From the NCBI GenBank assembly GCA_015232315.1, contig JADFZZ010000011.1, positions 1 to 64,000 on the forward strand: 64,000 nt of DNA, in the 5' to 3' direction. The stretch comes from SAR324 cluster bacterium (GTDB taxonomy: Bacteria > SAR324 > NAC60-12). The notes under the pieces were generated by a model. It saw nothing but the letters and a program-made list of their open reading frames with translations. It ran no database searches and had not been told where the DNA came from. Shown here in pieces: positions 1 through 16,563 of this stretch; within the stretch, counting starts at the first letter, position 1, and each line of letters opens with the position of its first letter. The position numbers and the translations under genes are program-made.

Positions 1-127
1 GACCGGACATGTTCCATGTTGACGGTGCCAAACAGCCAGGAGTCGCTTTTGTCCAAAAAGATTTCTCTGAATCTTCCATGCTCCTCTCTTCTCAAAACAG
101 GAATCCCATTCAGAGGCGAAAGGATTA
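1..127 (-). repeat. Direct repeat copy A: group II intron RT/HNH gene fragment
   Basis: This stretch matches 12124-12250 with about three mismatches and probably continues left of the window. Read on the minus strand it encodes the linker before the HNH domain of a group II intron reverse transcriptase (NPFASEWDSCFEKRGAWK, then LAVWHRQHGTC). It is only a fragment. The two copies are in the same orientation and bracket the restriction island. Confidence 0.7.
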
Positions 128-601
128 TGACACCCAAAAAGAGAACTATTCCGGTAAGAAGAAACGTCATAGTAAAAAAAATCTGGTCGTGGTGGATCTT
201 GACCGAAAAGTACATGTTCTCTCTCAAACACAAAATGGAAGTTCTCATGACTACCAAATGTTTAAGGACTCCAATATTGGGAATCAGATCCCTAAGGAAA
301 TAGTTGTCGCGGTTGACTCTGGTTTTACTGGAATTCTTAAAGATTATCCCAATCTTCGTGTGTTGATTCCCGAAAAAAACCGAAAAACGGGGAATTAACC
401 GCTCAACAAAAAGAAGACAATCGCTGGATATCAAAAATTCGAGTGATTGTTGAAAACACGATCGCGGGTATCAAACGATACAAAGCCGTCACGGATATTT
501 ATCGAAACAAAAAAACAGGTTTTGAGGATTCGTTGATGCTCATCGCATGCGGACTCTGGAATTGGCATCTAAAATCTGAAAAAGGTCTTGTATTTCAGTA
601 A
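128..601 (+). pseudogene. IS5-type DDE transposase, 5'-truncated and frameshifted
   Basis: The plus strand encodes the C-terminal half of a DDE transposase of the IS5 superfamily (DDE_Tnp_4-like). Visible blocks are YSGKKKRHSKKNLVVVD, then AVDSGFTGILKDYPN, then the C-terminal VIVENTIAGIKRYK followed by LIACGLWNWH. The first part stops at 396-398. The rest continues one frame away to a TAA at 599-601, consistent with loss of one base in the G run near 388. The N-terminal half is missing and replaced by the intron-derived repeat. The readable transposase-like sequence PIQRRKDYD already begins inside that repeat, so the exact junction is uncertain. No terminal inverted repeats are visible. The element is dead. 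Confidence 0.8.
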
Positions 602-653: not shown

Positions 654-3455
654 ATGTCTGAAACGGAAGCATTAACCAGAATTAAACGAATTGACAAGCA
701 ACTGGAACTCTCCGGTTGGAATGTTAAAGACCCTACTCAGGTCGTAAAAGAATACGATATTCATGTTGGGGTGGCTTCTGGTGTCGCGGAACCAGGAACT
801 CCTTATCAAGGACATCAATTCTCAGACTATGTTCTTTTAGGGAAAGACGCAAAGCCCTTGGCTGTTGTTGAAGCCAAGAAATCCAGTAAAGATGCCGCAA
901 TCGGTAGAGAACAGGCGAAACAATATTGCTACAATATCCAAAGAGAGATCGGTGGGGAACTTCCATTCTGCTTTTATACCAATGGGCTGGAAACCTATTT
1001 CTGGGATTTGGAAAACTACCCCCCACGGAAAGCAGTGGGCTTTCCCACTCGTGATGATCTGGAAAGATACAGTTACATACGGAGAAATCGCAAAGCACTT
1101 ACTCAGGAATTGATCAATACCGATATCGCAGGTCGTGATTACCAGATTCGGGCAATCCGTGCCGTTCTTGAAGGAATTGAACAGAAAAAACGCGATTTTC
1201 TGCTGGTAATGGCAACAGGTACAGGTAAGACTCGAACTTGTATTGCTCTGGTTGACGCTCTGATGCGTTCTGGTCATGCCGAAAAGATTCTTTTTCTTGT
1301 GGATCGAATCGCTTTGCGTGAGCAGGCACTTTCTGCATTTAAAGAACATCTTCCTAATGAACCTCGTTGGCCAAATGTCGGGGAAAAGCTGCTGGCAAAA
1401 GACCGCAGGATTTATATCTCAACCTATCCCACGATGCTCAATATTATTCGGGATGAATCACAAAATCTTTCATCCCACTTTTTTGATTTCATTGTAATCG
1501 ATGAAAGTCATCGATCCATTTATAATACCTATGGTGAAGTGCTGGACTATTTTAAAACCATAACCCTGGGACTCACGGCAACCCCCACCGATATCATTGA
1601 CCACAACACCTTTAATTTATTTCACTGCGAAGATGGCCTCCCCAGTTTTGCCTACACCTACGAAGAAGCCGTTAATAATATTCCACCCTATCTGAGCAGT
1701 TTTCAGGTAATGAAAATCCAGACCCGTTTTCAGATGGATGGGATCAATAAGAGAACCATATCTCTGGAAGACCAGAAAAAAATGATTCTGGATGGAAAGG
1801 ATATTGAAGAGATTAACTTTGAAGGCACTCAACTGGAAAAGCAGGTAATCAGCACCGGTACGAATACACTGATTGTCAAAGAATTTATGGAAGAGTCCAT
1901 CAAAGATCCTAATGGGGTTTTACCGGGAAAAACCATCTTCTTCTGTTCATCAATAGCCCATGCTCGTCGAATGGAAGAAATCTTTGACAAGCTCTATCCC
2001 GAATACAAAGGCGAACTGGCTAAAGTTCTTGTCTCCGATGATCCCCGTGTCTATGGCAAAGGCGGTTTGCTGGATCAGTTTACCAATAACGATATGCCCC
2101 GCATTGCGATCAGTGTGGATATGCTGGATACAGGAATTGATGTCCGTGAGATCGTCAATCTGGTGTTTGCGAAACCGGTGTACTCTTACACTAAATTCTG
2201 GCAGATGATTGGCCGTGGTACTCGCTTGCTGGAAGCCAAAAAAGCAAAACCCTGGTGTACTCAGAAAGATTTTTTCCTGATCATTGACTGCTGGGATAAT
2301 TTTGAATACTTCAAGCTCCAGCCCAAAGGGAAAGAACTCAAACCACAAATCCCATTGCCGGTAAAACTGGCAGGGTTCCGCATTGATAAAATAGAAGCAG
2401 CCCGGGATCAAGGACTTGATGAGGTTGTTTTTGCTGAGGTGGCTAAGCTTAGAAAACAGATTGCCTCTTTACCGAAAAACTCTGTAGTGATCAAAGAAGC
2501 GGCCAAAGCACTTCATTCTATTGAGGATGACAATTTCTGGATTACCCTCACTCATGAAAAAATGGAATTTCTACGCAATGAAATCAAACCGCTTTTCCGT
2601 ACTGTTTCTGACGCCGATTTTAAGGCAATGCGTTTTGAAAGAGATATTCTGGAAGTTTCTCTGGCAAAAATCAAAGAGGAAAAGACTCTATTCGACACCC
2701 TGAAGGAAGGAGTTGTCGAACTGATCAGCGAATTGCCACTGACCGTCTCTTTTGTAAATAAAGAGGAAGAACTGATTCGGGCCGCTCAGACAAACCGCTA
2801 CTGGTCAAAGATCAGCGAATCCGATTTTGATGAGCTGATAGAAAAGCTTGCCCCCTTAATGAAATTCCGTGAAAGCGATGCTGGAACAGTCGGGCCGATC
2901 ACACTTAATTTTAGAGATGAACTCCATAAAAAAGAGATGGTGGAGTTTGGCCCCCAAAATGAAGCGGTGAGTATTACCCGATACAGGGAAATGGTGGAAG
3001 AACTCATTGCCAGTTTAACGGAAGAGAATCCAATTCTTAAAAAGATTCGCGATGGCGAAGAAATTTCTCCCGACGAAGCAGAGAATCTGGCAAAGCTCTT
3101 GATCGAAGAACATCCACATATAACGGAGCTATTGCTGCAGAAAGTTTACAAAAATCGCAAAGCCCGCTTTATTCAGTTTATCCGCCATATTCTTGGCATT
3201 GAAATCCTCAAAAGCTTTCCCGATACCGTACAGGAAGCATTTGATCGATTCATACAACAGCACAGCAATCTCAACAGCAGACAGCTTGAGTTTTTGAATC
3301 TGCTGAAAAACTTTATCGTGGAGCGTGAAAAGGTAGAGAAAAAAGATCTGATCAACGCACCATTTACGGTCATTCACCCGCAGGGAATACGAGGTGTTTT
3401 CTCACCTGCGGAAATAAACGAAATATTACAACTCACTGAAAGACTTGCCGCGTAA
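654..3455 (+). CDS. hsdR: Type I restriction enzyme R subunit (HsdR)
   Basis: This 933-residue protein is the motor and nuclease subunit of a type I restriction-modification system, which translocates and cuts DNA lacking the host methylation. An N-terminal PD-(D/E)xK nuclease site is visible (D58, then E73-x-K75 in VVEAKK). Superfamily 2 helicase motifs follow: Walker A MATGTGKT at 186-193, DESH at 283-286, TATP near 309 and the motif VI-like QMIGRGTR near 520. The length and motif order fit the EcoEI-like HsdR branch. The C-terminal third is helical and probably contacts the methyltransferase core. The gene opens a plus-strand operon 31 bp before hsdM. No strong ribosome binding site is seen before the ATG. 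Nothing suggests inactivation. Confidence 0.95.
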   Translation: MSETEALTRIKRIDKQLELSGWNVKDPTQVVKEYDIHVGVASGVAEPGTPYQGHQFSDYVLLGKDAKPLAVVEAKKSSKDAAIGREQAKQYCYNIQREIGGELPFCFYTNGLETYFWDLENYPPRKAVGFPTRDDLERYSYIRRNRKALTQELINTDIAGRDYQIRAIRAVLEGIEQKKRDFLLVMATGTGKTRTCIALVDALMRSGHAEKILFLVDRIALREQALSAFKEHLPNEPRWPNVGEKLLAKDRRIYISTYPTMLNIIRDESQNLSSHFFDFIVIDESHRSIYNTYGEVLDYFKTITLGLTATPTDIIDHNTFNLFHCEDGLPSFAYTYEEAVNNIPPYLSSFQVMKIQTRFQMDGINKRTISLEDQKKMILDGKDIEEINFEGTQLEKQVISTGTNTLIVKEFMEESIKDPNGVLPGKTIFFCSSIAHARRMEEIFDKLYPEYKGELAKVLVSDDPRVYGKGGLLDQFTNNDMPRIAISVDMLDTGIDVREIVNLVFAKPVYSYTKFWQMIGRGTRLLEAKKAKPWCTQKDFFLIIDCWDNFEYFKLQPKGKELKPQIPLPVKLAGFRIDKIEAARDQGLDEVVFAEVAKLRKQIASLPKNSVVIKEAAKALHSIEDDNFWITLTHEKMEFLRNEIKPLFRTVSDADFKAMRFERDILEVSLAKIKEEKTLFDTLKEGVVELISELPLTVSFVNKEEELIRAAQTNRYWSKISESDFDELIEKLAPLMKFRESDAGTVGPITLNFRDELHKKEMVEFGPQNEAVSITRYREMVEELIASLTEENPILKKIRDGEEISPDEAENLAKLLIEEHPHITELLLQKVYKNRKARFIQFIRHILGIEILKSFPDTVQEAFDRFIQQHSNLNSRQLEFLNLLKNFIVEREKVEKKDLINAPFTVIHPQGIRGVFSPAEINEILQLTERLAA

Positions 3456-3486: not shown

Positions 3487-5220
3487 ATGCTGCAAAACAA
3501 CCCTGAACTGAAAAGCAAGATTGACCAACTCTGGAACAAATTCTGGTCTGGTGGAATATCCAACCCCCTCACTGCCATTGAACAGATCACCTATCTGCTC
3601 TTTATGAAGCGACTGGATGAACTGGATCAGAAGAGACAAGCCGATGCCGAATGGACCGGTGAAAAGTACGCTTCCAAATTTGAAGGCACCTGGATTCCAC
3701 CGGAATATCGTGCAAAATCCCGGGAAGATGACACCCAAAAAGAGACGGATAAAAAAGCTGAAGATGAAAAGCTGTATGAAATTGACAAACGAACTCTGCG
3801 TTGGAGCGAGTTCAAGCGAATGCACGCCGAAGAGATGCTACAGCATGTGCAGTCAAAGGTGTTTCCCTATCTGAAAGACCTCAACGGTGCGGAATCCAAC
3901 TTCACCCACCATATGAAAAATGCCGTCTTTATTATCCCAAAACCAGCACTTTTAGTGGAAGCCGTAAAGACCATTGATGAAATCTTTGAAGTGATGGAGA
4001 AGGATTCCAAAGAAAAAGGGCAAGCCTTTCAGGATATTCAGGGGGATGTGTATGAAATGCTTCTCTCGGAAATTGCCAGTGCCGGTAAAAACGGGCAGTT
4101 CAGAACACCACGTCATATTATCAAAATGATTGCCGATCTGGTACAGCCGCGACTTGGACACCGTATTGCTGACCCTGCCTGCGGTTCGGGGGGATTTCTT
4201 CTTGGAGCCTATCAGTACATTGTAACGCAATTGGCCCTCAACGCTGGAAGCAAAGACCTTGTTCCCGATGAGGACGGTTTTGTTCGTACCTCTGTTTCCG
4301 CAGGACTTACCGAAAAGTCGCAGGCGATTCTTAACGAATCTCTTTATGGCTACGACATTGACAGCACCATGGTTCGCCTCGGGCTGATGAACCTGATGAT
4401 GCATGGGATTGACGAACCCCATATTGATTATAAAGACACCCTCAGCAAGAGTTTTACCGAAGAATCCGAATACGATATTGTCATGGCAAATCCGCCCTTC
4501 ACCGGCAGTATCGACAAGGGTGACATTAATGAAAATCTCACACTCTCGACCACTAAAACAGAGCTTCTTTTTGTGGAGAATATTTTCCGGCTGCTGAAAA
4601 AAGGGGGAACTGCCGGGGTGATTGTGCCTCAGGGAGTTTTATTTGGAAATGGCGGAGCCTTCAGGGAATTGCGTAAAGCACTGTTGGAACGGTGTGATCT
4701 GAAAGCGGTAATTACCATGCCGAGCGGTGTCTTTAAACCCTACGCCGGAGTGAGTACGGCGGTGCTGCTCTTTACCAAGGTGTGGGGTCCAAAAGACAAA
4801 GTGACAAAACCGGCCACGGAACAGGTCTGGTTTTATGAAATGGCTTCCGATGGTTATTCGCTGGATGACAAGCGGAGTAAGCAGGACGGTTATGGGGATC
4901 TGGTTGATATTGTGGAGACGTTCAAAGCTCGTAATGCAGAGAAGGACACCGACCGTACCCGGAAATGCTTTATGGTACCCTATGCGGAAATTGCCAATGA
5001 TGAAAATAACTATGATCTTTCTTTAAGCCGTTACAAAGAGGATGTTTTTGAAGAAGTCGAGTATGAAAAGCCGGAAGTGATTCTGGAAAATCTTTTGAAG
5101 GAAGAAGTAGGTGAAGAGTTTTTTAACCGCAAAATACACGAAAAGCACGAAAAGGGTTTAGAAGGGTTAGAAAGCGGGATTGTGAAGGAGTTGCTGGAAT
5201 TGCGGGAGATGATCGGATGA
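3487..5220 (+). CDS. hsdM: Type I restriction system N6-adenine methyltransferase (HsdM)
   Basis: The 577-residue protein transfers a methyl group from S-adenosylmethionine to adenine N6 at the site chosen by HsdS. It has the HsdM N-terminal helical region, the AdoMet motif I DPACGSGGF at 229-237 and the catalytic motif IV NPPF at 335-338. The last 35 residues include FFNRKIHEKHEKGLEGLESG. This is a low-complexity repeat-derived tail whose 3' coding end is duplicated just before hsdS. The stop overlaps the next ATG (ATGA at 5217-5220), so the following gene is translationally coupled. A complete, apparently active enzyme. Confidence 0.96.
   Translation: MLQNNPELKSKIDQLWNKFWSGGISNPLTAIEQITYLLFMKRLDELDQKRQADAEWTGEKYASKFEGTWIPPEYRAKSREDDTQKETDKKAEDEKLYEIDKRTLRWSEFKRMHAEEMLQHVQSKVFPYLKDLNGAESNFTHHMKNAVFIIPKPALLVEAVKTIDEIFEVMEKDSKEKGQAFQDIQGDVYEMLLSEIASAGKNGQFRTPRHIIKMIADLVQPRLGHRIADPACGSGGFLLGAYQYIVTQLALNAGSKDLVPDEDGFVRTSVSAGLTEKSQAILNESLYGYDIDSTMVRLGLMNLMMHGIDEPHIDYKDTLSKSFTEESEYDIVMANPPFTGSIDKGDINENLTLSTTKTELLFVENIFRLLKKGGTAGVIVPQGVLFGNGGAFRELRKALLERCDLKAVITMPSGVFKPYAGVSTAVLLFTKVWGPKDKVTKPATEQVWFYEMASDGYSLDDKRSKQDGYGDLVDIVETFKARNAEKDTDRTRKCFMVPYAEIANDENNYDLSLSRYKEDVFEEVEYEKPEVILENLLKEEVGEEFFNRKIHEKHEKGLEGLESGIVKELLELREMIG
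5170..5220 (+). repeat. 51-bp direct repeat, copy 1 (3' end of hsdM)
   Basis: The terminal 51 bases of hsdM, encoding ESGIVKELLELREMIG and the TGA, recur at 6542-6592 with three mismatches. In both places the final ATGA provides the start codon of the next gene (DUF1016 nuclease here, hsdS there). The two copies bracket the DUF1016 gene. Confidence 0.9.
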
Positions 5221-6425
5221 GTAACCAGAATAATAAAAATATCTCAATTGACAACACTCTCTTTGACCGGGTTGTGTCCATTCTCGAACAAGCCCGTGGC
5301 AATGTTGTTCGTGCCGTCAATACCAATATGGTTACGGCTTATTGGTTGATTGGCCGGGAGATTGTACAGGAAATTCAGGGTGGTGAAGACCGAGCGGAAT
5401 ATGGAAAACAGCGAATAGAATCACTCTCGGCAAAACTCCAGCAAAGGTATAAAAAGGGGTTTTCCACTTCGAATTTATGGTATTTCAGACAATTTTTTCT
5501 CACTTATGAGAATAGAATACAGATTCCCCACCCGGCTGGTGGAGAAAGTACCCTTGAAATTCTCCACCAATCGGGTGGAGAATCACCAAAACACTACCCG
5601 TCGGATAGTGCATTCGATCCATCCAGTTCAATTCTCTCCCGGACGGGGAGAGAATTGATAAACGGTTTCAGTCCCCAGCTCTCCTGGTCACACTACCGTG
5701 CCCTGATGCGGGTGGACAACATGGAGGCCCGCGACTTCTACGAACGCGAAGCCATCGAATGCGGCTGGAGCAAAATGCAGCTCGAACGCCAAATCCACAG
5801 TTTTTACTATGATCGGATTATCGCCAACCAGGGAAAAAAAGGTCTGCTGCCACAAAGCCGGGAACGGCTGTCAGGTGAACGCATTGACCCTGCATCCATC
5901 ATCAAATCACCGCTCGTACTGGAGTTTTTAGGTCTGCCCGATCCACCGATACTGCACGAAAGCAAACTGGAGCAGGCGATTATTGATAACCTGCAAAGTT
6001 TCCTGCTGGAATTGGGTAATGGGTTTTCGTTCGTCGCTCGTCAAAAGCATATCCGTTTTGATGACGAGGATTTTTATATCGATCTCGTCTTCTATAACTA
6101 CATCCTCAAGTGCTTTCTGCTGATCGACCTCAAAATGGGAAAACTCAAGCATGCCGATATCGGACAAATGGATGGCTATGTCCGGCTCTACGAAGATCAG
6201 TTTAAAATTCCCGGCGACAATCCAACCATTGGACTGATCCTCTGCTCCGATAAATCTGAAGCCGTTGCCAAATATTCAATCCTGAACGAAAACAAGCAAA
6301 TCTTCGCCTCCAGGTATATGCTCTATTTGCCTACTGAAGAACAGTTGCAAAATGAGATTGAACGGGAGCGTCGGATGATTGAGGAAGTGATGAGTGAGAG
6401 AAAAGAGATTGGGGGTGAGGAATGA
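5217..6425 (+). CDS. DUF1016/YhcG-type PD-(D/E)xK nuclease family protein
   Basis: The 402-residue protein has the two-part architecture of the DUF1016 (YhcG) family: an N-terminal helical domain (about 10-200) with VVRAVNTNMVTAYWLIGREI and SNLWYFRQFF, and a C-terminal nuclease-like domain (about 225-390). Candidate PD-(D/E)xK residues are E252, D289 in YIDLVFYN and D304-x-K306 in LIDLKMG. Family members sit near restriction and toxin loci; their biochemical role is not settled. The start overlaps the hsdM stop by 4 bp. Residues about 101-150 are an insertion encoded by palindromic DNA. Because the gene is bracketed by a duplication of the hsdM end, it looks like a late addition to the operon. 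Nuclease activity is inferred from the family. Confidence 0.88.
   Translation: MSNQNNKNISIDNTLFDRVVSILEQARGNVVRAVNTNMVTAYWLIGREIVQEIQGGEDRAEYGKQRIESLSAKLQQRYKKGFSTSNLWYFRQFFLTYENRIQIPHPAGGESTLEILHQSGGESPKHYPSDSAFDPSSSILSRTGRELINGFSPQLSWSHYRALMRVDNMEARDFYEREAIECGWSKMQLERQIHSFYYDRIIANQGKKGLLPQSRERLSGERIDPASIIKSPLVLEFLGLPDPPILHESKLEQAIIDNLQSFLLELGNGFSFVARQKHIRFDDEDFYIDLVFYNYILKCFLLIDLKMGKLKHADIGQMDGYVRLYEDQFKIPGDNPTIGLILCSDKSEAVAKYSILNENKQIFASRYMLYLPTEEQLQNEIERERRMIEEVMSERKEIGGEE
5522..5657 (+). repeat. In-frame palindromic insertions inside the DUF1016 gene
   Basis: Several inverted repeats lie back to back in the coding sequence. One has arms ATTCTCCACC at 5559-5568 and GGTGGAGAAT at 5574-5583. 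Another has arms CAATTCTCTCCC at 5629-5640 and GGGGAGAGAATTG at 5645-5657. Weaker ones lie near 5522-5547 and 5592-5611. All are read through in frame and add about 50 residues between the N-terminal helical segments. Confidence 0.7.
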
Positions 6426-6592: not shown

Positions 6593-8613
6593 AATCTAAT
6601 TATAAAATTGAACCGCTTGGAGAACATGTTAAACAATTTAGCCTTCGTAATAAAGATGAAGCTGATATTGAAGTTTACTCAGTAACAAACTCTGCCGGCT
6701 TCACTCTATCGACTGACTACTTTAGTAAAGAGGTTTTCAGCAAAGATGTGTCAAATTACAAGATAGTTTCCCGAGATCAATTCGCTTATAATCCATCTCG
6801 TATCAATGTTGGATCAATAGATTATTTACGCAATAAAGATAAAGTTCTAGTAAGCCCTCTTTACATTATATTCGAAACCGACTCCAAATTAAGTGAAGAC
6901 TATTTACTTCGTTTTCTAAAGAGCGATTGGGGAAATATTCAGATACGTGCAAATACGGAAGGTGCGGTTCGTGATTCGCTCAAGTTTAAAGGGCTGGAAA
7001 AAATCCAAATCCCCCTCCCGCCCATCGACGACCAAAAACGCATTGCCCATCTTCTGGGCAAAGTGGAAGGGATGATCGCCCGGCGTAAACAACACCTGCA
7101 GCAGTTGGATGAGTTGCTGAAAAGTGTGTTTCTGGAGATGTTCGGGGATCATTTTACCCAAGGAAACTATAAGTCTTTTGGAGAATACATTGATGTCCTA
7201 ACTGATTATCATGCAAATGGTAGTTATGAAATTTTAAGAGATCATGTTGAACTACAAACGACACCTGATTTTGCTTTAATGGTTAGAACTACAGACTTAG
7301 AAAATAAAAATTTCGTGGACGGTTGTAATTATATAACAGAAAAAGCTTATGAATTTCTTTCGAAATCAAAGGTTTATGGAGGTGAAATAATCATCAATAA
7401 AATTGGTAGTGCGGGTCGAGTATATCTAATGCCATTTTTGAATAGACCAGTTTCATTAGGCATGAATGCATTTCTTCTTAGGTTTAACAATAAACTCAAT
7501 AACATCTATATGTATTATTTGTTAACATCTGATTTTGGAACTAATGCTATACAGAAACATGTAAAAGGTGCTGTCACAAAAACAATTACTAAGAATGCAA
7601 TTAGAAGCATAAAGATTCCTGTGCCACCCATAACTCTACAAAACCAATTCGCCTCTATCGTCTCAAAAGTCGAATCCCTGAAATCCCGCTATCAATCCAG
7701 CCTTTCCAATCTGGAAAATCTCTATGGTGCTCTCAGCCAGAAGGCGTTTAAGGGGGAGCTGGATTTGGGAAGGGTTCCGTTGCCGGTGGTGGAAGAAGCG
7801 GAGAAACCTGAGGATGTTCCAGTGCTCCCTTTTGATGAAGGTCTGTCAGAAACAATGAAGAAAACACTGGCAGACCTGAATAAATTCAACAATAGCAGTG
7901 CTTCACTTAGGGCTTTGCAAGAAGCAATGGCAATCAATCTTGATAGCCCTACAATGAAAGCGGCTCAAATGCTGGCAGAACAGGCCCGGCTCTGGAAAAA
8001 CCCGCTGGATGAATTGAAGAATATGTCGTCCGTTTCCCGTGCAATGGCAGAACTTGCGAAACTTTCAACTCTTCCACAAATGACAGTGGAACAGTTGGAG
8101 GCTTTCCGAAGTACCAGTAGACTGGCACAGCAACTTGCGGCATCTCTTCCCAAAATCGATATGAGATTCATAGAACAACAAAAAAAGCTCCTGGAAAACG
8201 CCTCACGCCCTTTTATGGAAATGCAGAAGACTCTGGCAAATCTTAATCTTTCTCATACAACCCTTTCCGGAACACTGGATGATTCCGAAGCTGTAGCTCG
8301 CCGCTTTCAGGCCGCTATTCCCGATTTTTCAAGTTGGCAGCAACAGTATCGTACACCAGAGAATATTGATACAGACGAAGAGGATGAAGAGCCAAAGCAT
8401 ATTTTTACCCGTTATGATATTACCGATATATTGACAGACAAAACAGGGCTCTCTTTTGAAGAACTGTCAAAGAAACTATCAGAACTGGAAAGAATCGATC
8501 TTTCATCTTATGAACGAATCAGAAGTATTCTTTTTGAAATGCTGCGAGAAGAGGTTTTGACGCAGCAATTTGACGCAGAAAGCCAATCACTTCAGTTGAG
8601 GCTGACAAAATGA
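6589..8613 (+). CDS. hsdS: Type I restriction specificity subunit (HsdS) with long C-terminal extension
   Basis: HsdS selects the DNA target for both methylation and restriction. Two target-recognition domains are visible (about 1-185 and 195-385). Each ends in a proline-rich conserved segment and helical spacer: PLPPIDDQKRIAHLLGKVEG near 140 and PVPPITLQNQFASIVSKVES near 343. At 674 residues the protein is far longer than the usual 400-450. From about residue 405 it carries a mostly helical, Leu/Ala/Met-rich extension ending in a segment around FTRYDITDILTDKTGLSFEEL. That extension has no motif I recognise and could dock the ATPase/HNH pair downstream. The start is fixed by the coupled ATGA at 6589. 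The stop overlaps the ATPase start by 4 bp. Confidence 0.9.
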   Translation: MKSNYKIEPLGEHVKQFSLRNKDEADIEVYSVTNSAGFTLSTDYFSKEVFSKDVSNYKIVSRDQFAYNPSRINVGSIDYLRNKDKVLVSPLYIIFETDSKLSEDYLLRFLKSDWGNIQIRANTEGAVRDSLKFKGLEKIQIPLPPIDDQKRIAHLLGKVEGMIARRKQHLQQLDELLKSVFLEMFGDHFTQGNYKSFGEYIDVLTDYHANGSYEILRDHVELQTTPDFALMVRTTDLENKNFVDGCNYITEKAYEFLSKSKVYGGEIIINKIGSAGRVYLMPFLNRPVSLGMNAFLLRFNNKLNNIYMYYLLTSDFGTNAIQKHVKGAVTKTITKNAIRSIKIPVPPITLQNQFASIVSKVESLKSRYQSSLSNLENLYGALSQKAFKGELDLGRVPLPVVEEAEKPEDVPVLPFDEGLSETMKKTLADLNKFNNSSASLRALQEAMAINLDSPTMKAAQMLAEQARLWKNPLDELKNMSSVSRAMAELAKLSTLPQMTVEQLEAFRSTSRLAQQLAASLPKIDMRFIEQQKKLLENASRPFMEMQKTLANLNLSHTTLSGTLDDSEAVARRFQAAIPDFSSWQQQYRTPENIDTDEEDEEPKHIFTRYDITDILTDKTGLSFEELSKKLSELERIDLSSYERIRSILFEMLREEVLTQQFDAESQSLQLRLTK

Positions 8614-10334
8614 AATTGATCCGCTTGAAGATTACCGATCCTCACGGATTCAGAAGTTTGCAACCCGGCTTTGAATATCACTTTCGCAGGGAGTGGGAGC
8701 TTGACCGTGATGATGAGTTTGCGCCCTTCATTTGCGCCGGGCCAAATGGAAGCGGAAAGTCAAATCTGCTTGAATTATTAGCGGCAATCTTTTTTCATTT
8801 GGATTGCAAAGGATTAGTAAATCGTCCCGATCTATTTGAATACAACGAGGAAACTGTCCCTAATGGTTACCGGGAAGAGATTGGATCACCAGACGCTTTT
8901 GAATTGGAGTTTTATGGCAAACCCTTTGCGGACTTTGCTTTAGCAACGAATGAACATTATCCACGGGTTTTAATAACCAAAGAAATCGACAAGGGACCGC
9001 AATACTTCATTCTCAATGGACTTAAATTGGATCCTCATGAACCACTTCAAAGTCAATTAGTTAAAAAGATTCTGCCTGATTTTATCCTTGCCTACTCCTC
9101 AGGCGAAAATGAAATTCTCAGCCTGTCTTTCTTCAAGATGCGATTTATCCATTTTGATGAATATGCCGATTTCAGCAGAAAAAATATAGGATACTCATGT
9201 CCGCCCAATGGGGACCAGCCGGAGGGGCGACTTGCATTTTTGGACCAGGATTTCAGTCAGGCTATACTGTTGAGCAATTTCATTCTTGGTGAGAAATCAA
9301 CATTAATTCCATTTGCCCAGGAAATAGGCCTTGAGGGAATACACTTTTTTAGAATTATACTTCGGGACATTCAGTATCCTTCAGGGCTAGGGGTATCATC
9401 AAGCTCGACCACATCTCCAGCCACCAGCAAATCCGATGGTTCAACAGGGCTTCGTTCTGAATGGCCCCTTCTTGAAAAAGCGGCTCCCATTGTTAACAGC
9501 CTGAAAAGCTGTGCTACCTCTTTTTTCCGGGATGATAAGGACACCTTATACATGGATTTTTGGCTGGATGAACAATGCCAGAAAGCCTTCAGAGCTCATT
9601 TTGAAAGTCCATTGAAGCTTTTCCAATCACTGCAATTACTTCTGGCACTCAATCTCTATTCGGTTAGCAATCAGCAGAAGCTGGAAATGTACCAATCAAA
9701 TAGCCTTTATTTCAATGAAACAATTCCCGTTCTTCCTTCTGACCTTCGAGTGGTTCGTTTCAAAGATGTTATTCTGAAAAAACGAGGTGTAGATTCAGAC
9801 CGCATAGTCTACTGTAAAGCCCTTTCTGATGGTGAAAATCAATTTCTGCACACATTGGGACTTTGCACCCTCTACCGTGATAACAGTGTGCTTTTTTTAC
9901 TTGATGAACCTGATACTCATTTCAATCCGGATTGGAGATCAAAATTTATCTCCCGCCTTCGAGACTGCTTTCCCACATCCAATAGTTTCAGAGAAATGCT
10001 GATTACTACCCATACACCATTTTTAATTTCTGATAGCAAGCCGGAAAAAGTCCTGGTGTTCGAAAAAGATGAAGAGACTGGAAAAGTGGCAATTACTCGA
10101 CCCGATTACAATACCCTTGGAGCTTCGATAAATAAAATCACAATGAGTGTTTTCAATAAACGGGAAACGATTGGTGGTTTTGCTGAATCAAAACTTAGTG
10201 AAATGAAATCCCGATATGAAAATGGTGAAAATCCAGAGAATCTCATTAACGAAATAAATGAAACACTTGGTGACTCTATTGAAAAAATCCTGCTGATTAA
10301 AACGATGCTTGATATTGATAAGGGGGGAAAGTAA
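8610..10334 (+). CDS. Restriction-system-associated AAA/ABC-type ATPase
   Basis: The 574-residue ATPase has an SMC/ABC-like layout. Walker A GPNGSGKS is at 44-51, the signature-like SDGEN near 407 and Walker B LFLLDEPDTHFNPDW near 426, followed by an ITTHTPFLIS switch segment. It resembles the AAA ATPases described as associated with restriction systems and, more distantly, the PtuA/RecF-like ATPases of two-gene defence modules. It starts inside the hsdS stop (ATGA) and its stop overlaps the HNH gene start by one base, so the pair should be made together. The likely role is sensing DNA or nucleotide state and controlling the HNH nuclease. That role is inferred from neighbours. Confidence 0.88.
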   Translation: MKLIRLKITDPHGFRSLQPGFEYHFRREWELDRDDEFAPFICAGPNGSGKSNLLELLAAIFFHLDCKGLVNRPDLFEYNEETVPNGYREEIGSPDAFELEFYGKPFADFALATNEHYPRVLITKEIDKGPQYFILNGLKLDPHEPLQSQLVKKILPDFILAYSSGENEILSLSFFKMRFIHFDEYADFSRKNIGYSCPPNGDQPEGRLAFLDQDFSQAILLSNFILGEKSTLIPFAQEIGLEGIHFFRIILRDIQYPSGLGVSSSSTTSPATSKSDGSTGLRSEWPLLEKAAPIVNSLKSCATSFFRDDKDTLYMDFWLDEQCQKAFRAHFESPLKLFQSLQLLLALNLYSVSNQQKLEMYQSNSLYFNETIPVLPSDLRVVRFKDVILKKRGVDSDRIVYCKALSDGENQFLHTLGLCTLYRDNSVLFLLDEPDTHFNPDWRSKFISRLRDCFPTSNSFREMLITTHTPFLISDSKPEKVLVFEKDEETGKVAITRPDYNTLGASINKITMSVFNKRETIGGFAESKLSEMKSRYENGENPENLINEINETLGDSIEKILLIKTMLDIDKGGK

Positions 10335-11473
10335 TGCTGTTTCCCTATAAGTATGTTCCACACAAGATGGAAATGATGCAGGAGTTTATTGACTTCATAT
10401 TCTATGAAGTTTGGTGTAAGGCTTCATCGCTTCAATATGGAGCTGACATATTCGAGAAAGAGGGGAAGCCTTGGAAGCAAATTATGGAAGAGCTATTTCG
10501 GCTCGATGCCGCAGGAAAGATGAAAGATGTCGGGGCAGCAGCATTTTTCTATAACGATGTAAATCAAATATTCAATGAATTCAAAATATTAACAGCTAAG
10601 GAAATTGAATGCTATAAAACGATACACAAGATAAATAACAGCATAAAGGATGTTTGTAAAAAGACCTGTACACAGCCTCCCTCGAAATATTGTGATCTAT
10701 TGGCAACTAAAGAAAAACTGAATGAATTATTGAAAGATTTCTTTTCAAAGCTGTACTCTTCTGGATTCTTTCACTTAAAGCTTGTTAAAGATGCCTTTGA
10801 ATCAACACTCTCTGAATACTATACTGATTTTGTTCGTACGAATAATGAAGATATCTGTCCGTTCTGTGGGCTACAACCTCTTGATGGCGAATTTGATCCT
10901 ACCCGTGAGGCCTTTGATCACTATCTGCCAAAAAGCCTGTATCCATTTAACTCAGTGAATCTTCAAAATCTTGCACCCTCTTGTAACAAATGCAATTCCG
11001 GAAACAAGAAAGATAAAGACACGGTCTTTAATCAAGACGGGTCTAACAGAAAGGCGTTTTATCCATTTTCGACTGAACAATATAAAGCAAACATCGATAT
11101 AACAATTACAGAAAAAAAATGGTATAAAATGACCCCTGATTGCCTCATGTTGAATTTGTCATCTGATGGCTATGAAGAAGAGGTAAACACCTGGATAGAT
11201 TTATTTCGAATAGATCAGAGATTTGCAGCTCATTGTTGCGGCAAACGTGGCGAAATCAATTGGCTTAATAGGATTTTTACCGAATCAACGAATTATCAGA
11301 AAACACCTAAAGAAGTGCTGAGAAATGAGCTTGAGTATCTTTCGTCGGATCTACTGAGCGACGCTAATTTTCTCAAAAAACCCTTCCTTGAAGCTTGTGA
11401 ACAAGCAGGACTATTTAATGAAGATCAGCTTCCGCCGTCCATGGCTCCATCTGAAAAGATGGGCAAGTTTTAA
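10334..11473 (+). CDS. HNH endonuclease partner of the AAA ATPase
   Basis: The 379-residue protein has a long helical N-terminal region (1-165) and a zinc-bound HNH fold. The latter shows CPFC at 175-178, FDHYLPKS with D195-H196, NLAPSCNKCNSGNK with C217 and C220, and downstream asparagine and lysine residues typical of HNH/McrA-like nucleases. The ATPase-then-HNH order with overlapping ends is that of Septu-like (PtuA-PtuB) modules. It closes the operon; beyond it lie only intron remnants and repeats. DNA or RNA cleavage is likely but the substrate cannot be told from sequence. Confidence 0.87.
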   Translation: MLFPYKYVPHKMEMMQEFIDFIFYEVWCKASSLQYGADIFEKEGKPWKQIMEELFRLDAAGKMKDVGAAAFFYNDVNQIFNEFKILTAKEIECYKTIHKINNSIKDVCKKTCTQPPSKYCDLLATKEKLNELLKDFFSKLYSSGFFHLKLVKDAFESTLSEYYTDFVRTNNEDICPFCGLQPLDGEFDPTREAFDHYLPKSLYPFNSVNLQNLAPSCNKCNSGNKKDKDTVFNQDGSNRKAFYPFSTEQYKANIDITITEKKWYKMTPDCLMLNLSSDGYEEEVNTWIDLFRIDQRFAAHCCGKRGEINWLNRIFTESTNYQKTPKEVLRNELEYLSSDLLSDANFLKKPFLEACEQAGLFNEDQLPPSMAPSEKMGKF

Positions 11474-11614
11474 AAACTAAAGACCCGCCGCAGGAGAATT
11501 ACGATGAAAACCGGTTTACAAACGGCCCATAACAGCAGGTATACGCTACGCCATGCAGGCTTGGCATTCGGCACATTCGGATATGCCGCAATACCCGTGA
11601 GTGAAATCAGGTTC

Positions 11615-11671
11615 GTAGTCCCGCCTTTAGGCGGAAAGCCCTGCGGAAAAGCCGCCTGAAGGCGGAACTAC
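11615..11671. repeat. Palindromic REP-like element (GTAGT...ACTAC)
   Basis: An imperfect inverted repeat begins GTAGTCCCGCCTTTAGGCGG and ends with the near-complement CCGCCTGAAGGCGGAACTAC. It can fold into a long hairpin or act as a small non-coding mobile repeat. It shares the GTAG...CTAC ends with elements at 12499, 13536, 23799 and 45709. Confidence 0.7.
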
Positions 11672-11915
11672 AAACTTTTCGCCAGGATTTAATTGAAACC
11701 CCGAAATAAACTATAACTCACTGTAATTAGATTGCTTATTAATTATAATCCCAAATTCACTCACTGGTATTGGGTTATGCCGGACGTCACATACCGCAAC
11801 CGTTAAGAATTTGAGAAGTAAAATGAAAAAAATGTATAATCGGGTAGAGGGGAGCTTTTCTCTTCCCCCTCCCAGTCGGGTAAGAGGGTAGTGTTACCAC
11901 AACGCTTTCCCCTAA

Positions 11916-11949
11916 GAACGGATCGTACGGTTTTCACAGTAATCCGCTC
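11916..11949 (-). ncRNA. Group II intron domain V
   Basis: The 34-nt minus-strand sequence runs from GAGCGGAT to ATCCGTTC. It folds into the conserved domain V hairpin with the catalytic AGC triad in the lower stem, a two-base CG bulge on the 3' side and a GAAA tetraloop. One T-C mismatch interrupts the upper stem. Its position directly after the HNH remnant is the standard intron layout. Confidence 0.75.
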
Positions 11950-11967
11950 AAGCCTTGATAAGCGGGT

Positions 11968-12250
11968 TCAGCCGACAAAACCACGTTTGATAAAGGGTGA
12001 TACCTGGTTGTGACAAATAGAATGGAGCAGCGCCACATTGGATGACAGGTTCGTTCCTCCTTGAGATCGGGGAAGAATATGATGGACTTCAAATTCCTCT
12101 CTTTCAGTCAGAAGTCTTGAACAGACCGTACATGTTCCATGTTGACGGTGCCAAACAGCCAGGATTCGCTTTTGTCCAGAAAGATTTCTCTGAATCTTCC
12201 ATGCTCCTCTCTTCTCAAAACAGGAATCCCATTCAGAGGCGAAAGGATTA
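11968..12250 (-). pseudogene. Group II intron-encoded protein, C-terminal HNH fragment
   Basis: Read on the minus strand this encodes NPFASEWDSCFEKRGAWK, a CTVC zinc pair, then VHHILPRSQGG and LLHSICHNQ, ending at a stop at 11968. This is the H-N-H endonuclease domain at the C terminus of intron-encoded reverse transcriptases, which makes the second-strand cut during retrohoming. The upstream junction to the RT fragment is broken by a stop and a deletion, so it is not a functional gene. Confidence 0.8.
12124..12250 (-). repeat. Direct repeat copy B (matches 1-127)
   Basis: The 127-bp match to the window's left end, about 97% identical, lies inside the HNH fragment. It stops at the same base in both copies (before GCGTGTC here and before TGACACC at 128). 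The roughly 12 kb between the copies is the transposase remnant plus the whole restriction operon. Confidence 0.85.
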
Positions 12251-12255
12251 GCGTG

Positions 12256-12400
12256 TCAAGGGACAATACGGGTTTTTTCCGGAGATAACCTCAACCCTCT
12301 TTCCGCAAGAAACTTCTCGGTAATCGGCTTGACCCGATTTTCAAGAACTTCTTTGTCGTTTCCGGTAATAATCCAGTATCCGCTGTTTACGTATCACGAT
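12256..12400 (-). pseudogene. Group II intron reverse transcriptase fragment (domains 5-6)
   Basis: The minus strand encodes IITGNDKEVLENRVKPI followed by FLAERGLRLSPEKTRIV and a stop. This is the segment just after the YADD catalytic box of intron reverse transcriptases. The YADD position itself reads as NSGYW, so the active site has decayed. Confidence 0.7.
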
Positions 12401-12498
12401 GTTTATCAGAAGTTCAGATACCTTAACCCTGGGATGATGAAAATTCAGGTCACTCGATAGAATGGAATTGATCCCGTTTTTATCCCCATAATGGGATG

Positions 12499-12542
12499 GT
12501 AGTGGCGGCTTTCTAATTTGCCGCCACGTAGGGCGGCACTAC
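12499..12542. repeat. Palindromic GTAGTG...CACTAC element
   Basis: GTAGTGGCGGC is followed, after a short AT-rich spacer, by GCCGCCACGTAGGGCGGCACTAC. It forms a hairpin of the same general type as the other GTAG...CTAC elements in the window. It lies in non-coding sequence downstream of the intron remnant. Confidence 0.55.
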
Positions 12543-12839
12543 CGTTTTTATGGAATAAAACTTGGATCTCTTATTTTGAAATAAAAATATCATTCTTTAG
12601 TGCGATTTTCATCATCCCACCTTAACCCTATCATCTTAGCCTGGCTCCTGATCCGCCTGATGCTGGCAGAGTTGGTTTTTTCCTCGCGGAAAAACCTCCT
12701 ACCCGTTATGTGGATAAGGGATTCATTGTTTTGACAGCTTCACACCCAAGAATTACTACTGACGCATGTGTCAATAGGCTACCATGAACGGAATCATGGG
12801 TTAGGTCACAGATTTGAAAACCTATGCCTAACAATTAAT

Positions 12840-13450
12840 AAAGCGACCTCGTGTCGCACCACCACCTCGCATGCCGGTCCGCACGTGTCGGTTCATCGGG
12901 TCTTTTAAAAAAGTCTCTCGGTACAGTGAAACTTCCAAGGCCGGTTTTCTGCCTAACGCCGCATCTCACATGCCCGGTCGGGGTGAACACGGAAGTCGAG
13001 TTAGTCAGGACTCCTCCTTATTCTAAGATGTCAGGCCCTTCGCCATGTCTTACGCATTACCGCGAGCGTTCGACTACTACGGCATGTGCTGACTTCTGCT
13101 CAATCACCCGATGAATTGCTTCATCAAGCGCTACAAAATACAAAGAAGCATTCTGCCGCATATTGAACAGATCTCCCCAGATAAGGACGAGCTCTGTCTC
13201 GACACAACCGCCTCATTTACTCTATCTCGTAAGCCGCAGGGCTTTGACATGCTTGGCTACCTCGTCCCGGAGAAGTGAGCCTTTTATGAGGATCCTGTCC
13301 GTTGATTCGTCGATTTGCTCCGGGCTTCCTTCATACCGTTCCTCGCCGATTGGCCCTTGCCTTTCGCTAGTGGTTATGACATTCATTGCCCTTAGGTTTC
13401 GGTTTGTTTTCTCTGTTTGCCGCCTGCTGTCGCGGCGGTGCCACAATATT
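12840..13450 (-). mobile_element. ORF-less group II intron-like RNA remnant
   Basis: On the minus strand the sequence has stock phrases of bacterial group II introns in the right order. A domain I-like stretch (CCTAAGGGCAATGAA, then GGTATGAAGGAAGCC) lies at about 13300-13400. The pre-ORF segment CAGAAGTCAGCACATGCCG is at about 13080-13098 and a would-be ribosome binding site ATAAGGAGGAG near 13020. A domain V-like hairpin GAACCGACACGTGCGGACC is at about 12860-12895. No reverse transcriptase lies between the last two; the ORF looks deleted. The lower stem of domain V pairs poorly, so it is probably inactive. The 5' boundary is uncertain. Confidence 0.5.
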
Positions 13451-13535
13451 GAAACCATAGATAAAGAAAGCCAGCGGCTTTCCCACAGGAGACTTGCATC
13501 CCATTAGAACGCGCCCATGCTGGGCGTACCAAAAC

Positions 13536-13594
13536 GTAGGAGCGAACCTGTGTGTTCGCCCAACTTCCGGGCAGACACACAGGTCTGCCCCTAC
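13536..13594. repeat. 59-bp palindromic element (intact copy)
   Basis: Two short hairpins, each with an arm of the type GGGGCAGAC..GTCTGCCC or GCGAAC..GTTCGC, sit on either side of a five-base centre. The ends are GTAG and CTAC. The same 59-bp unit, split by an insertion, occurs at 45709-45933 in the opposite orientation. Confidence 0.85.
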
Positions 13595-13883
13595 AGTACA
13601 AAACCATGACCGAAAAGATGATCGTGCCTTCTTGAAGGATGCTGATTTATTTTTCTGAAACACTATTTTTCAGCCCATATTTCTAGAACTGCCGAAGATA
13701 TTTTCAAAGAAAAATTATAAAAATTTGTTTTCGTACTTGAATATTATCTGTCTGCTCGTTAACCACATCACATGAGTGAGACACTTTTATTTTATTCAGG
13801 GAGATTTATCTTGTGGTCGGGTGCGATCATTCCTGGAGCCTGAAGTTATTCTCATATAAGTCCGACCCTAAAAAGAGGCTGCC

Positions 13884-14358: not shown

Positions 14359-16563
14359 ATGAAACGAATTGTCAGTATCAGTCTTGGGCCAAGCCGCGAA
14401 AATTATGAATTTGATACCGAGTTTCTGGGACAGAAATTCAATATCAAACGCTTTGGAACCAACAATGATGAGAAAAAAGCGGAAGAACTGATTTTAAAAT
14501 GGCAACATGAAGCGGATGTTATTGGTCTGGGCATGGTTCGGGACCATAATATCGTGGGAACCAAAAAATATATTCAGAAACCCACTGAACACCTGGAAAA
14601 GCTGGTAACCAAGATTCCTGTCACAACAGGCGCCAATCTGCGAACCATCGTTCAGGAATGGGTATTGCGGGATGTTCAGGCCCGGCTTGGTGGCTATTTC
14701 AACAATGCGCGCGTCCTGATTCTTTCTGGAATGACCAATTACAAAGTTGCGACGGTTCTGTCAGAATTCACAGAAAATATTTCGTTTGCTGATCCGATCC
14801 TGCAAATGGGGATTCCGAAATTGATCACCAATATGCATGCACTGGAATTGTATGCGAGGGGAAGTGACTCATGGACGAAACACGCACCCAGCAAAGATAT
14901 TGTGCCGTCTATGGTTCCCCTTCAGAAATGGAATAAATTTATCCTTAGAAAAGCCATGCAGAAAGCCTCTGTCGTGGTGGCCCCATTCAATCAGATTGAA
15001 AAATATGGTCTGGAAGAACTGGCAGGCAAAACGATCCTGACTTCCACGGTTTCAGAGGAACGACTCCGTTTTCTGGGCGCGCAGGGCGTTAACATGGTGA
15101 TTGACGGATCGCCTCAAGTGTTTGATGGAAAAACGGTGGGACTGAATGTGCTGGATGCGGTGATTATCGCCGCTCTGGATAAAGGCCCGGAGGCCATCAC
15201 CAATGATAACTATCTCGAAATACTCTCAACCCATCATGAACTGGAACCCAGAATTCTTTATCCTTCTGGTGAAAAACGACGATTCAGCCGGTTTGCGTTT
15301 GTAATTCATCCGTTGTCACAGGAATATTTCAAAAAAGTAAAACCTGTGGAAATTTTATCCAAACTGCCCTCCAACGCCGTCATGAATGCGCTGGAAAAAG
15401 CCATGGCCTATGCGCCTCCGTTTATTTATTCAGAAGTCAAAGGCATTCGGTCTCCCACCGGCGCGGAAGCAGAAGGCTGGCTGATTTCTGTCGGCGGAAC
15501 ACCAAAAGAAATCATGTCGCACAGTCCTGAATTCACCTATCGCCGTTTGCTTGCCGCCGCAAAAATGGCCAAGAAACTCGGGGCACAGATCATGGGTCTG
15601 GGGGCCTTCACCAAAGTGGTGGGTGATGCGGGAATCACCGTGGCCAAACGTGCTCCGCTGCCGATCACTACCGGAAACAGCTACAGCGCCTCGGGCGCAA
15701 TCTGGGCCGCCGCTGACGCGGTACGGCGCATGGGGCTGGTTCAATTGGAAGAAGGCAAGCGCATCAAAGGAAAAGCAATGGTGGTTGGCGCAACCGGCGC
15801 GATTGGTTCAGTGTGTGCCCGTCTGCTGGCAAAGGTCATTGGCGAATTGCACATGGTGTCCCCTGAAACTGGAAAACTGCTGGCCTTGAAAGATTCCATC
15901 CTGATGGAAGATCCGGAGTTGATCATTCATCTGTCGTCTTTTGCCGGCAAGGATCTGGAAGACATGGATATGATTGTGACCGCGACTTCAGGCGCAGGGA
16001 AAAAGATTCTTGACATCATGAAGGTTAAACCGGGTTGTGTGATCACCGATGTGGCTCGTCCACTGGATCTTCCCCCGGAAGAAGTCGCCAAACGTCCAGA
16101 TGTGCTGGTCATTGAATCCGGTGAGATTGAACTGCCGGGTGATGTGCATATGAAAAATATCGGACTTCCCAAAAAAGTGGCCTATGCCTGTCTGGCGGAA
16201 ACCATTGTGCTGGCCCTCGAAGGACGGTTTGAAAACTTCACTCTGGGTCGTAACATTGAATGGGAAAAAGTCCGGGAAATTTATAAACTGGGAATCAAGC
16301 ACGGCATGAAGCTCGCGGCGATTTCAGGGGTCAATGGCGTTTACTCGGACGAAGACATTGCCCGGGTTCGTGATCTTGCCATTGAAAAACGAAAGGCTGC
16401 CGCACCAAAGGTCGCAGAACAGAAAAATGAAGTGCCAAAGGCCGAAGCTCCAAGGAGTGCGGCGCCCAAAGTTGCCCCAACCAAGACGACTGCGCCCAAA
16501 GTAGCGAAAAAAGTTGCGGCACCCAAAAAGAAACCCGCTAAGGACAACGGTGAAACCAAATAA
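14359..16563 (+). CDS. Large acyl-ACP-reductase-like (COG5322-type) dehydrogenase
   Basis: The 734-residue protein has a C-terminal half (about 330-680) closely resembling cyanobacterial long-chain acyl-ACP reductase and the predicted dehydrogenases of COG5322. It shows GLGAFTKVVGDAG near 412, the TTGNSY box near 436, an NAD(P)-binding VVGATGAIG near 475 and the YACLAETIVLALEG block near 610. The cysteine in that last block aligns with the thioester-forming residue of the reductase. The N-terminal ~330 residues are an extra domain that I do not recognise. The C terminus (from about 680) is a Lys/Ala/Pro-rich tail with repeated APK units, probably disordered. Reduction of an acyl thioester or related carbonyl is inferred. 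It sits between the STAS/zinc-ribbon gene and a lipoprotein gene. Confidence 0.75.
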   Translation: MKRIVSISLGPSRENYEFDTEFLGQKFNIKRFGTNNDEKKAEELILKWQHEADVIGLGMVRDHNIVGTKKYIQKPTEHLEKLVTKIPVTTGANLRTIVQEWVLRDVQARLGGYFNNARVLILSGMTNYKVATVLSEFTENISFADPILQMGIPKLITNMHALELYARGSDSWTKHAPSKDIVPSMVPLQKWNKFILRKAMQKASVVVAPFNQIEKYGLEELAGKTILTSTVSEERLRFLGAQGVNMVIDGSPQVFDGKTVGLNVLDAVIIAALDKGPEAITNDNYLEILSTHHELEPRILYPSGEKRRFSRFAFVIHPLSQEYFKKVKPVEILSKLPSNAVMNALEKAMAYAPPFIYSEVKGIRSPTGAEAEGWLISVGGTPKEIMSHSPEFTYRRLLAAAKMAKKLGAQIMGLGAFTKVVGDAGITVAKRAPLPITTGNSYSASGAIWAAADAVRRMGLVQLEEGKRIKGKAMVVGATGAIGSVCARLLAKVIGELHMVSPETGKLLALKDSILMEDPELIIHLSSFAGKDLEDMDMIVTATSGAGKKILDIMKVKPGCVITDVARPLDLPPEEVAKRPDVLVIESGEIELPGDVHMKNIGLPKKVAYACLAETIVLALEGRFENFTLGRNIEWEKVREIYKLGIKHGMKLAAISGVNGVYSDEDIARVRDLAIEKRKAAAPKVAEQKNEVPKAEAPRSAAPKVAPTKTTAPKVAKKVAAPKKKPAKDNGETK

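What the first reader, a model, noticed from the sequence alone, without database searches (positions are those of the whole stretch)
8610..11473. Septu-like ATPase-HNH module coupled to a type I specificity subunit
The ATPase has Walker A, an SDGEN signature and Walker B with DEPD. The HNH partner follows with a one-base overlap, and the ATPase start lies in the hsdS stop. ATPase+HNH pairs act alone in Septu-type defence. Here translation is tied to hsdS, which suggests that DNA recognition or stalled translocation by the restriction complex could trigger the HNH nuclease.
Basis: partly seen in the sequence, partly recalled or inferred. Interest (0 to 1): 0.62.

Follow-up and report, generated by a model that had tools for sequence, protein, structure and literature searches.

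The report
Restriction enzyme wired to second nuclease
A bacterial restriction system carries an extra ATPase-plus-nuclease pair, and whenever such a pair sits next to the DNA-recognition gene, that protein has grown an extra tail (here predicted to end in a small winged-helix domain), which suggests the pair is physically wired to the DNA-recognition part and can even replace the usual cutting subunit.

Summary
Observation confirmed. At 8610-11473 lie an intact ABC-type ATPase and an HNH protein, coupled by overlapping codons to hsdS. The operon is larger than reported: hsdR, hsdM, yhcG (PDDEXK), an unusually long hsdS (674 aa), ATPase, HNH. The ATPase already belongs to a named family, TIGR04435 'restriction system-associated AAA family ATPase'. 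Its nearest solved relatives are PtuA (Septu and retron effectors), but it falls far below the PtuA cut-off. It is therefore Septu-like and not Septu.

What is new here: HsdS that precedes such a pair carries a C-terminal tail of 60 or more aa in 30 of 32 loci, against 1 of 23 related HsdS without the pair. On an HsdM tree, 6-7 of 8 independent contrasts agree and none oppose (p about 0.016). Within the TIGR04435 group the tails share a conserved domain, predicted in the window to be a winged helix. Two loci found afterwards fit. On five complete plasmids the module is HsdM-HsdS-ATPase-HNH with no HsdR, and the methylase motifs are largely kept.

Best reading: HsdS is the adaptor that docks and gates a PtuAB-like effector on the type I methyltransferase. 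Stalled HsdR translocation cannot be the general trigger. Trigger and substrate remain inferred.

The parts
654..3455 (+). hsdR, type I restriction/translocase subunit (933 aa)
   Evidence: HSDR_N, ResIII, EcoEI_R_C in Pfam; PADLOC REase_I 6e-164
3487..5220 (+). hsdM, N6-adenine methyltransferase (577 aa), motifs DPACGSG and NPPF intact
   Evidence: Pfam N6_Mtase 6e-61; motifs
5217..6425 (+). yhcG/DUF1016 PDDEXK nuclease gene inserted between hsdM and hsdS (402 aa)
   Evidence: Pfam YhcG_C 5e-55 and DUF1016_N; PADLOC PDC-S02; also between M and S in L039
6589..8613 (+). hsdS, specificity subunit (674 aa) with two recognition domains and a long C-terminal tail
   Evidence: Pfam Methylase_S, two stretches; the standard HsdS profile ends at residue 391
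7762..8409 (+). HsdS helical arm (about residues 392-607), shared with L009 and L010 only
   Evidence: alignment A4; low-confidence helices
8410..8604 (+). HsdS C-terminal winged-helix domain (about residues 608-672), proposed adaptor for the ATPase-HNH pair
   Evidence: AlphaFold2 pLDDT 81-92, winged-helix topology; Foldseek hits are winged helices, probability up to 1.00, E 0.04 and weaker; conserved in held-out tails
8610..10334 (+). ATPase, TIGR04435 family (574 aa); overlaps the hsdS stop by 4 bases
   Evidence: NCBIfam 682 bits, cut-off 300; PDB relatives PtuA and AriA
8739..8762 (+). Walker A GPNGSGKS of the ATPase
   Evidence: translation, conserved in alignment A1
9822..9836 (+). ABC signature LSDGE of the ATPase
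   Evidence: invariant SDGE in A1; S[DE]GE in all restriction-linked homologues, S[ST]GE in stand-alone pairs where a signature was found
9891..9914 (+). Walker B LFLLDEPD of the ATPase
   Evidence: translation, alignment A1
10334..11473 (+). HNH protein (379 aa), one base shared with the ATPase stop
   Evidence: PADLOC PDC-M01B 2e-17, PDC-M62B 4e-17, PtuB 2e-9; TIGR02646 3e-4, below cut-off
10856..11008 (+). zinc-ribbon HNH core: CPFC, DHYLPK, N, NL, CNKCN, K
   Evidence: invariant columns of alignment A2

Best explanation
This is a type I restriction-modification operon with a second, PtuAB-like effector docked on its methyltransferase. The C-terminal tail of HsdS, ending here in a winged-helix domain, is the adaptor that holds the ATPase-HNH pair on the M2S complex. 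Shown: gene order, conservation, gain and loss of the tail together with the pair, a shared tail domain within the TIGR04435 group, loci without HsdR, intact catalytic motifs. Inferred: direct contact between the HsdS tail and the ATPase; M2S reading an unmethylated target (or being blocked by a phage factor) as the signal; ATP-driven rearrangement releasing the HNH nuclease; the substrate, which by analogy to PtuAB is either DNA or a host tRNA. With HsdR present the pair is a second line of defence. In HsdR-less relatives it is the only effector next to the methyltransferase.
For: Conserved M-S-ATPase-HNH order with a usual 4-base S/ATPase overlap, in loci from Chlorobiota, Bacteroidota, Verrucomicrobiota, Bacillota, cyanobacteria and Pseudomonadota. 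HsdS tail of at least 60 aa: 30 of 32 linked loci, 1 of 23 unlinked. On the HsdM tree, 8 supported independent contrasts: tail changes with linkage in 6-7, against it in 0, sign test p 0.016. L011 and L094 have nearly identical HsdM, with tails of 144 and 8 aa. Tail domain shared across groups: 20 of 25 held-out tails beat all 500 shuffles; control HsdS reach at most 5 bits. Two loci found later fit (tails 142 and 131 aa; 41 and 61 bits; 0 of 1000 shuffles). Winged-helix model. Tail type follows the ATPase rather than the methylase: L048 and L051 have distant HsdM but the TIGR04435-type tail. HsdR-less loci keep NPPF in HsdM, and all those aligned except L052 keep a recognisable motif I.
Against: No interface was predicted and no complex tested. 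Some tails (L015, L052, L053) do not score in the held-out test, and tails of the second ATPase clade (L117, L131, L132, L134, L135) are not detectably homologous to the first. L049 has a PtuA-like pair but only a 42-aa tail; L039 has 27, with its ATPase also truncated. A winged helix may simply bind DNA. L100 has a long, unrelated tail without the pair. HsdR could act from the chromosome in the HsdR-less plasmids.
Confidence: 0.6

Rival explanations
1. PrrC-like guard. The ATPase-HNH pair is kept latent by the intact methyltransferase and is freed when a phage anti-restriction protein (Ocr, Stp or similar) binds the complex. It then aborts infection, for example by cutting host tRNA. The HsdS tail is the silencing contact.
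For: PrrC is held silent by the type Ic enzyme EcoprrI and activated by T4 Stp (PMC2610378; PMC3874165). PtuAB of retron-Eco7 depletes tRNA-Tyr (PMC11555353) and Septu cleaves tRNA-Tyr (PMC13096335). The related ATPase AriA of PARIS senses Ocr and unleashes a tRNA nuclease (PMC12839542). The docking evidence fits equally well.
Against: HsdR-less operons keep methyltransferase motifs. That is expected if methylation protects the host from this effector, less so for a pure decoy. No tRNA-specific feature was identified in the HNH protein.
Confidence: 0.3
2. Independent Septu-type cargo. The ATPase-HNH pair works alone and is merely co-transcribed with the restriction genes.
For: Related pairs do occur alone on plasmids (L127-L130, L137, L138). 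Other cargo genes (YhcG, GIY-YIG, Abi) sit in the same operons.
Against: Stand-alone ATPases separate from restriction-linked ones in the tree (96/90, long branches) and differ in the signature residue (S/T against D/E). Cargo without a functional link does not predict the HsdS tail.
Confidence: 0.12
3. The tail only adds DNA contacts to HsdS, as winged helices commonly do, and makes no contact with the ATPase.
For: The nearest fold matches are DNA-binding winged helices. BREX methylases carry a C-terminal winged helix proposed to extend DNA binding (PMC12839542).
Against: Tail presence depends on the ATPase-HNH neighbour and not on the methylase family; in the TIGR04435 group the tail domain recurs even with distant HsdM.
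Confidence: 0.15

Closest known systems
TIGR04435, restriction system-associated AAA family ATPase (NCBIfam)
   Same: The window ATPase is a full-length member, 682 bits against a cut-off of 300. The family name already records the link to restriction systems.
   Different: The family covers only the ATPase. No paper in the searched library mentions the accession. HNH partner, HsdS tail and HsdR-less loci were not found described.
Septu / retron I-A effectors PtuA-PtuB
   Same: ABC-type ATPase followed by an HNH protein; nearest solved structures of the ATPase are PtuA; HNH core matches PtuB models weakly.
   Different: Far below the PtuA cut-off (48 of 500 bits); larger HNH protein (379 aa); no retron; fixed behind hsdS. 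The HNH model had no significant PDB match.
PrrC with EcoprrI (type IC restriction plus anticodon nuclease)
   Same: Toxic ATPase-nuclease effector built into a type I restriction operon (PMC2610378, PMC3874165).
   Different: PrrC is one protein with its own nuclease domain. Here the ATPase and the HNH nuclease are separate and lie behind an HsdS with an added domain.
OLD-ABC ATPase/HNH dyads near BREX, and PARIS (AriA-AriB)
   Same: ATPase-nuclease pairs proposed as back-up effectors of restriction-like systems (PMC12839542). AriA is a distant solved relative of the ATPase.
   Different: Those lie in BREX or stand alone. No type I HsdS adaptor tail is described in the passages read.
Type I restriction-modification (EcoAI/EcoEI-like HsdR)
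   Same: Complete HsdR, HsdM, HsdS.
   Different: HsdS is 674 aa, not about 390, and the operon adds YhcG, ATPase and HNH.

Membership tests
TIGR04435 restriction system-associated AAA ATPase | Whole-protein score above the curated cut-off of 300 bits | tested here: met
   682.5 bits, residues 1-570
TIGR04435 restriction system-associated AAA ATPase | Linked to type I restriction genes | tested here: met
   hsdR, hsdM, hsdS upstream in the window
Septu (PtuA-PtuB) | ATPase passes the curated PtuA model | tested here: not met
   48.2 bits, cut-off 500 (NF041760); PADLOC PtuA models do match, best 1.3e-44
Septu (PtuA-PtuB) | HNH partner of PtuB type directly downstream | tested here: inconclusive
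   HNH core matches PtuB models at 2e-9, PDC-M01B better at 2e-17; structure search not significant
Septu (PtuA-PtuB) | Two-gene system that acts alone | tested here: inconclusive
   The pair lies behind hsdS in the window and in the TIGR04435 loci examined, so it is not found as a free two-gene locus; whether it can act alone was not testable
Septu (PtuA-PtuB) | PtuA-PtuB assembly with ATP-controlled HNH activity | not testable with these tools
   no complex prediction or biochemistry available
Type I restriction-modification | HsdR, HsdM and HsdS with catalytic motifs | tested here: met
   Families; HsdM motifs aligned; HsdR Walker A GTGKT
PrrC-type guard of a type I enzyme | Anticodon-nuclease domain fused to the ATPase | tested here: not met
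   No such domain in Pfam, NCBIfam or PADLOC results; the nuclease is a separate HNH protein
PrrC-type guard of a type I enzyme | Silenced by the intact enzyme, activated by its inhibition | not testable with these tools
   needs infection or reconstitution experiments

The most novel reading that the evidence does not exclude
A form of restriction-modification in which the type I methyltransferase, through an added winged-helix tail on HsdS, directs a PtuAB-like ATPase-HNH effector in place of HsdR: DNA methylation status gates a Septu-type nuclease, and HsdR has been dispensed with several times.
Probability: 0.35. Interest if true: 0.8.

Novelty: new variant of a known kind. Interest (0 to 1): 0.6.

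Why it matters
How PtuAB-type effectors sense infection outside retrons is open. If HsdS is their sensor arm here, methylation status or attack on the methyltransferase becomes a defined, testable input. The HsdR-less loci would show that a type I methyltransferase can work with an entirely different effector. The tail is a small, deletable handle that tests the idea directly.

Tried and rejected
A first test of tail homology used overly wide groups (nearly all tails were linked into one group), so training sets were nearly empty and it was uninformative; it was redone with groups at E below 1e-3. The HNH structure search against the PDB was not significant; retron Ec78 PtuB was only rank 18. 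The HNH profile found no solved sequence. The ATPase has no match in the phage collection. Tails of the second ATPase clade could not be shown to be homologous to each other. The long tail of L100 looked like an exception but does not score on the tail-domain model. Literature searches found no description of the HsdS tail. Two papers likely to be relevant (the Septu structure paper and a classification of ABC ATPases) are not held, so earlier description cannot be excluded. Only two structure jobs were available, so no complex was modelled.

Full report
1. The ATPase (8610-10334) and the HNH protein (10334-11473) are intact, with the motifs named and the junctions described. The ATPase start overlaps the hsdS stop by four bases and the HNH start shares one base with the ATPase stop. 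The operon also holds hsdR, hsdM and a YhcG/DUF1016 PDDEXK gene. HsdS is 674 aa: a profile of ordinary HsdS ends at residue 391, leaving a 283-residue tail.

2. Family. The ATPase is a full-length member of TIGR04435, 'restriction system-associated AAA family ATPase' (682 bits, cut-off 300), and only 48 bits to PtuA, cut-off 500. Its nearest solved relatives by sequence are PtuA of retrons Ec78 and Ec83 and of Septu, then AriA. The HNH protein matches PADLOC candidates PDC-M01B and PDC-M62B (2e-17, 4e-17) and PtuB at 2e-9, through the HNH core. It is therefore Septu-like and not Septu by the curated models. The family name shows that the association with restriction systems is already known. 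The family is uncommon: over the cut-off in 2 of 58, 6 of 338, 7 of 394 and 2 of 398 genomes of four surveys, each count including the genome from which that survey started.

3. A conserved operon. In 27 loci from genomes and plasmids of several phyla, HsdS is followed by the ATPase and the HNH protein, mostly with a 4-base overlap between hsdS and the ATPase gene. Accessory genes are inserted at various places (GIY-YIG, Abi, YhcG). Some copies are decaying or carry assembly errors: split or truncated ATPases in L010, L039, L040 and L048, a split hsdS in L050, and HNH remnants directly after hsdM in L096 and L099.

4. The HsdS tail. Controls were HsdS of related type I operons found through HsdM. 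Among 32 linked loci, 30 have a tail of 60 aa or more; among 23 unlinked, one does. Relatedness was controlled on an HsdM tree. Of 8 supported independent contrasts, the tail changes with linkage in 6-7, against it in none, and does not differ in 1-2 (sign test p about 0.016). The cleanest pair is L011 and L094: nearly identical HsdM, tails of 144 and 8 aa. L116 and L117, another methylase family, repeat the pattern (11 and 100 aa). The tree was a quick one, and some long branches are unsure.

5. The tail is a domain. Profiles built without the group being tested recognised 20 of 25 tails above all 500 shuffles. Control HsdS reached at most 5 bits. Two loci fetched later from viral contigs (L139, L140) had tails of 142 and 131 aa scoring 41 and 61 bits, 0 of 1000 shuffles. 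AlphaFold2 models the last 65 or so residues of the window tail as a winged helix at pLDDT 81-92, the rest being low confidence. Foldseek matches are winged-helix proteins with probability up to 1.00 but E-values of 0.04 or weaker. The tail type follows the ATPase: L048 and L051 have distant methylases yet carry the TIGR04435-type tail, whereas a second clade of linked ATPases (L117, L131, L132, L134, L135) has tails that do not score on it.

6. Operons without HsdR. No HsdR was found near L045, L046, L048, L052 or L053. Nor is there an HSDR_N match anywhere on five complete plasmids that carry the module, while all four HsdR-bearing plasmids searched alongside gave one. Chromosomal HsdR cannot be excluded for those hosts, and the genomes of L045, L046 and L048 do hold HsdR elsewhere. 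The HsdR-less methylases keep NPPF, and all but L052 keep a recognisable motif I. So stalled HsdR translocation cannot be the general trigger. Retained methylase motifs fit a role of methylation in protecting the host from the remaining effector. That step is inference.

7. Mechanism. I propose that the HsdS tail docks the ATPase-HNH pair on the M2S methyltransferase and passes on its state. Two triggers fit: M2S meeting unmethylated DNA, or M2S blocked by a phage anti-restriction protein, as for PrrC and EcoprrI (PMC2610378, PMC3874165). PtuAB relatives deplete or cleave tRNA-Tyr in retron-Eco7 and in one Septu (PMC11555353, PMC13096335). [quoted passage not shown] The substrate here is thus open. 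I put docking at about 0.7 and the direct-sensing trigger somewhat above the guard trigger.

8. Relation to stand-alone pairs. In an ATPase tree, restriction-linked and stand-alone ATPases fall on two sides of one branch (96/90), with many long branches. Linked ATPases carry S[DE]GE in the signature; stand-alone ones with a recognisable signature carry S[ST]GE. Similar ATPase-HNH dyads have been reported near BREX as back-up effectors (PMC12839542).

9. Verdict. A new variant of a known kind: a type I system with a PtuAB-like effector whose link to HsdS is now supported by a co-inherited tail domain. Not shown: contact, trigger and substrate.

Noticed in passing
window 5217-6425: A YhcG/DUF1016 PDDEXK gene (PADLOC candidate PDC-S02) sits between hsdM and hsdS, overlapping hsdM by 4 bases. 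L039 has the same insertion.
   Followed up: partly
L096:7689-8033 and L099:4002-4346 (oriented on hsdM): HNH remnants of 114 aa follow hsdM directly with hsdS and the ATPase gone: deletion scars of the module in close relatives.
   Followed up: partly
L131, L132, L134, L135, L117: A second, distinct clade of PtuA-like ATPases (signature LSEGEQ) with small HNH proteins, mostly with a DHFRP motif, is also fixed behind tailed HsdS, often without HsdR.
   Followed up: partly
all restriction-linked ATPases, window 9822-9836: The ABC signature has an acidic residue (S[DE]GE) in restriction-linked ATPases and S or T in the stand-alone pairs where it could be read: a possible marker of the linked lineage.
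   Followed up: partly
L100:7683-9473 (oriented on hsdM): An HsdS with a 218-aa tail but no ATPase-HNH pair; the tail is unrelated to the winged-helix tail.
   Followed up: no
L136 (Herpetosiphon plasmid): A second N-6 methylase gene lies between hsdS and the ATPase; here HsdS has no tail.
   Followed up: no
window 9-398: IS5-type transposase fragment at the left edge of the operon.
   Followed up: no
window 11474-13883: About 2.4 kb without a convincing gene downstream of the HNH gene; one inverted repeat at 13536-13594.
   Followed up: partly
window 14359-16563: A 734-aa protein matching long-chain acyl-ACP reductase and PigE models below their cut-offs.
   Followed up: no
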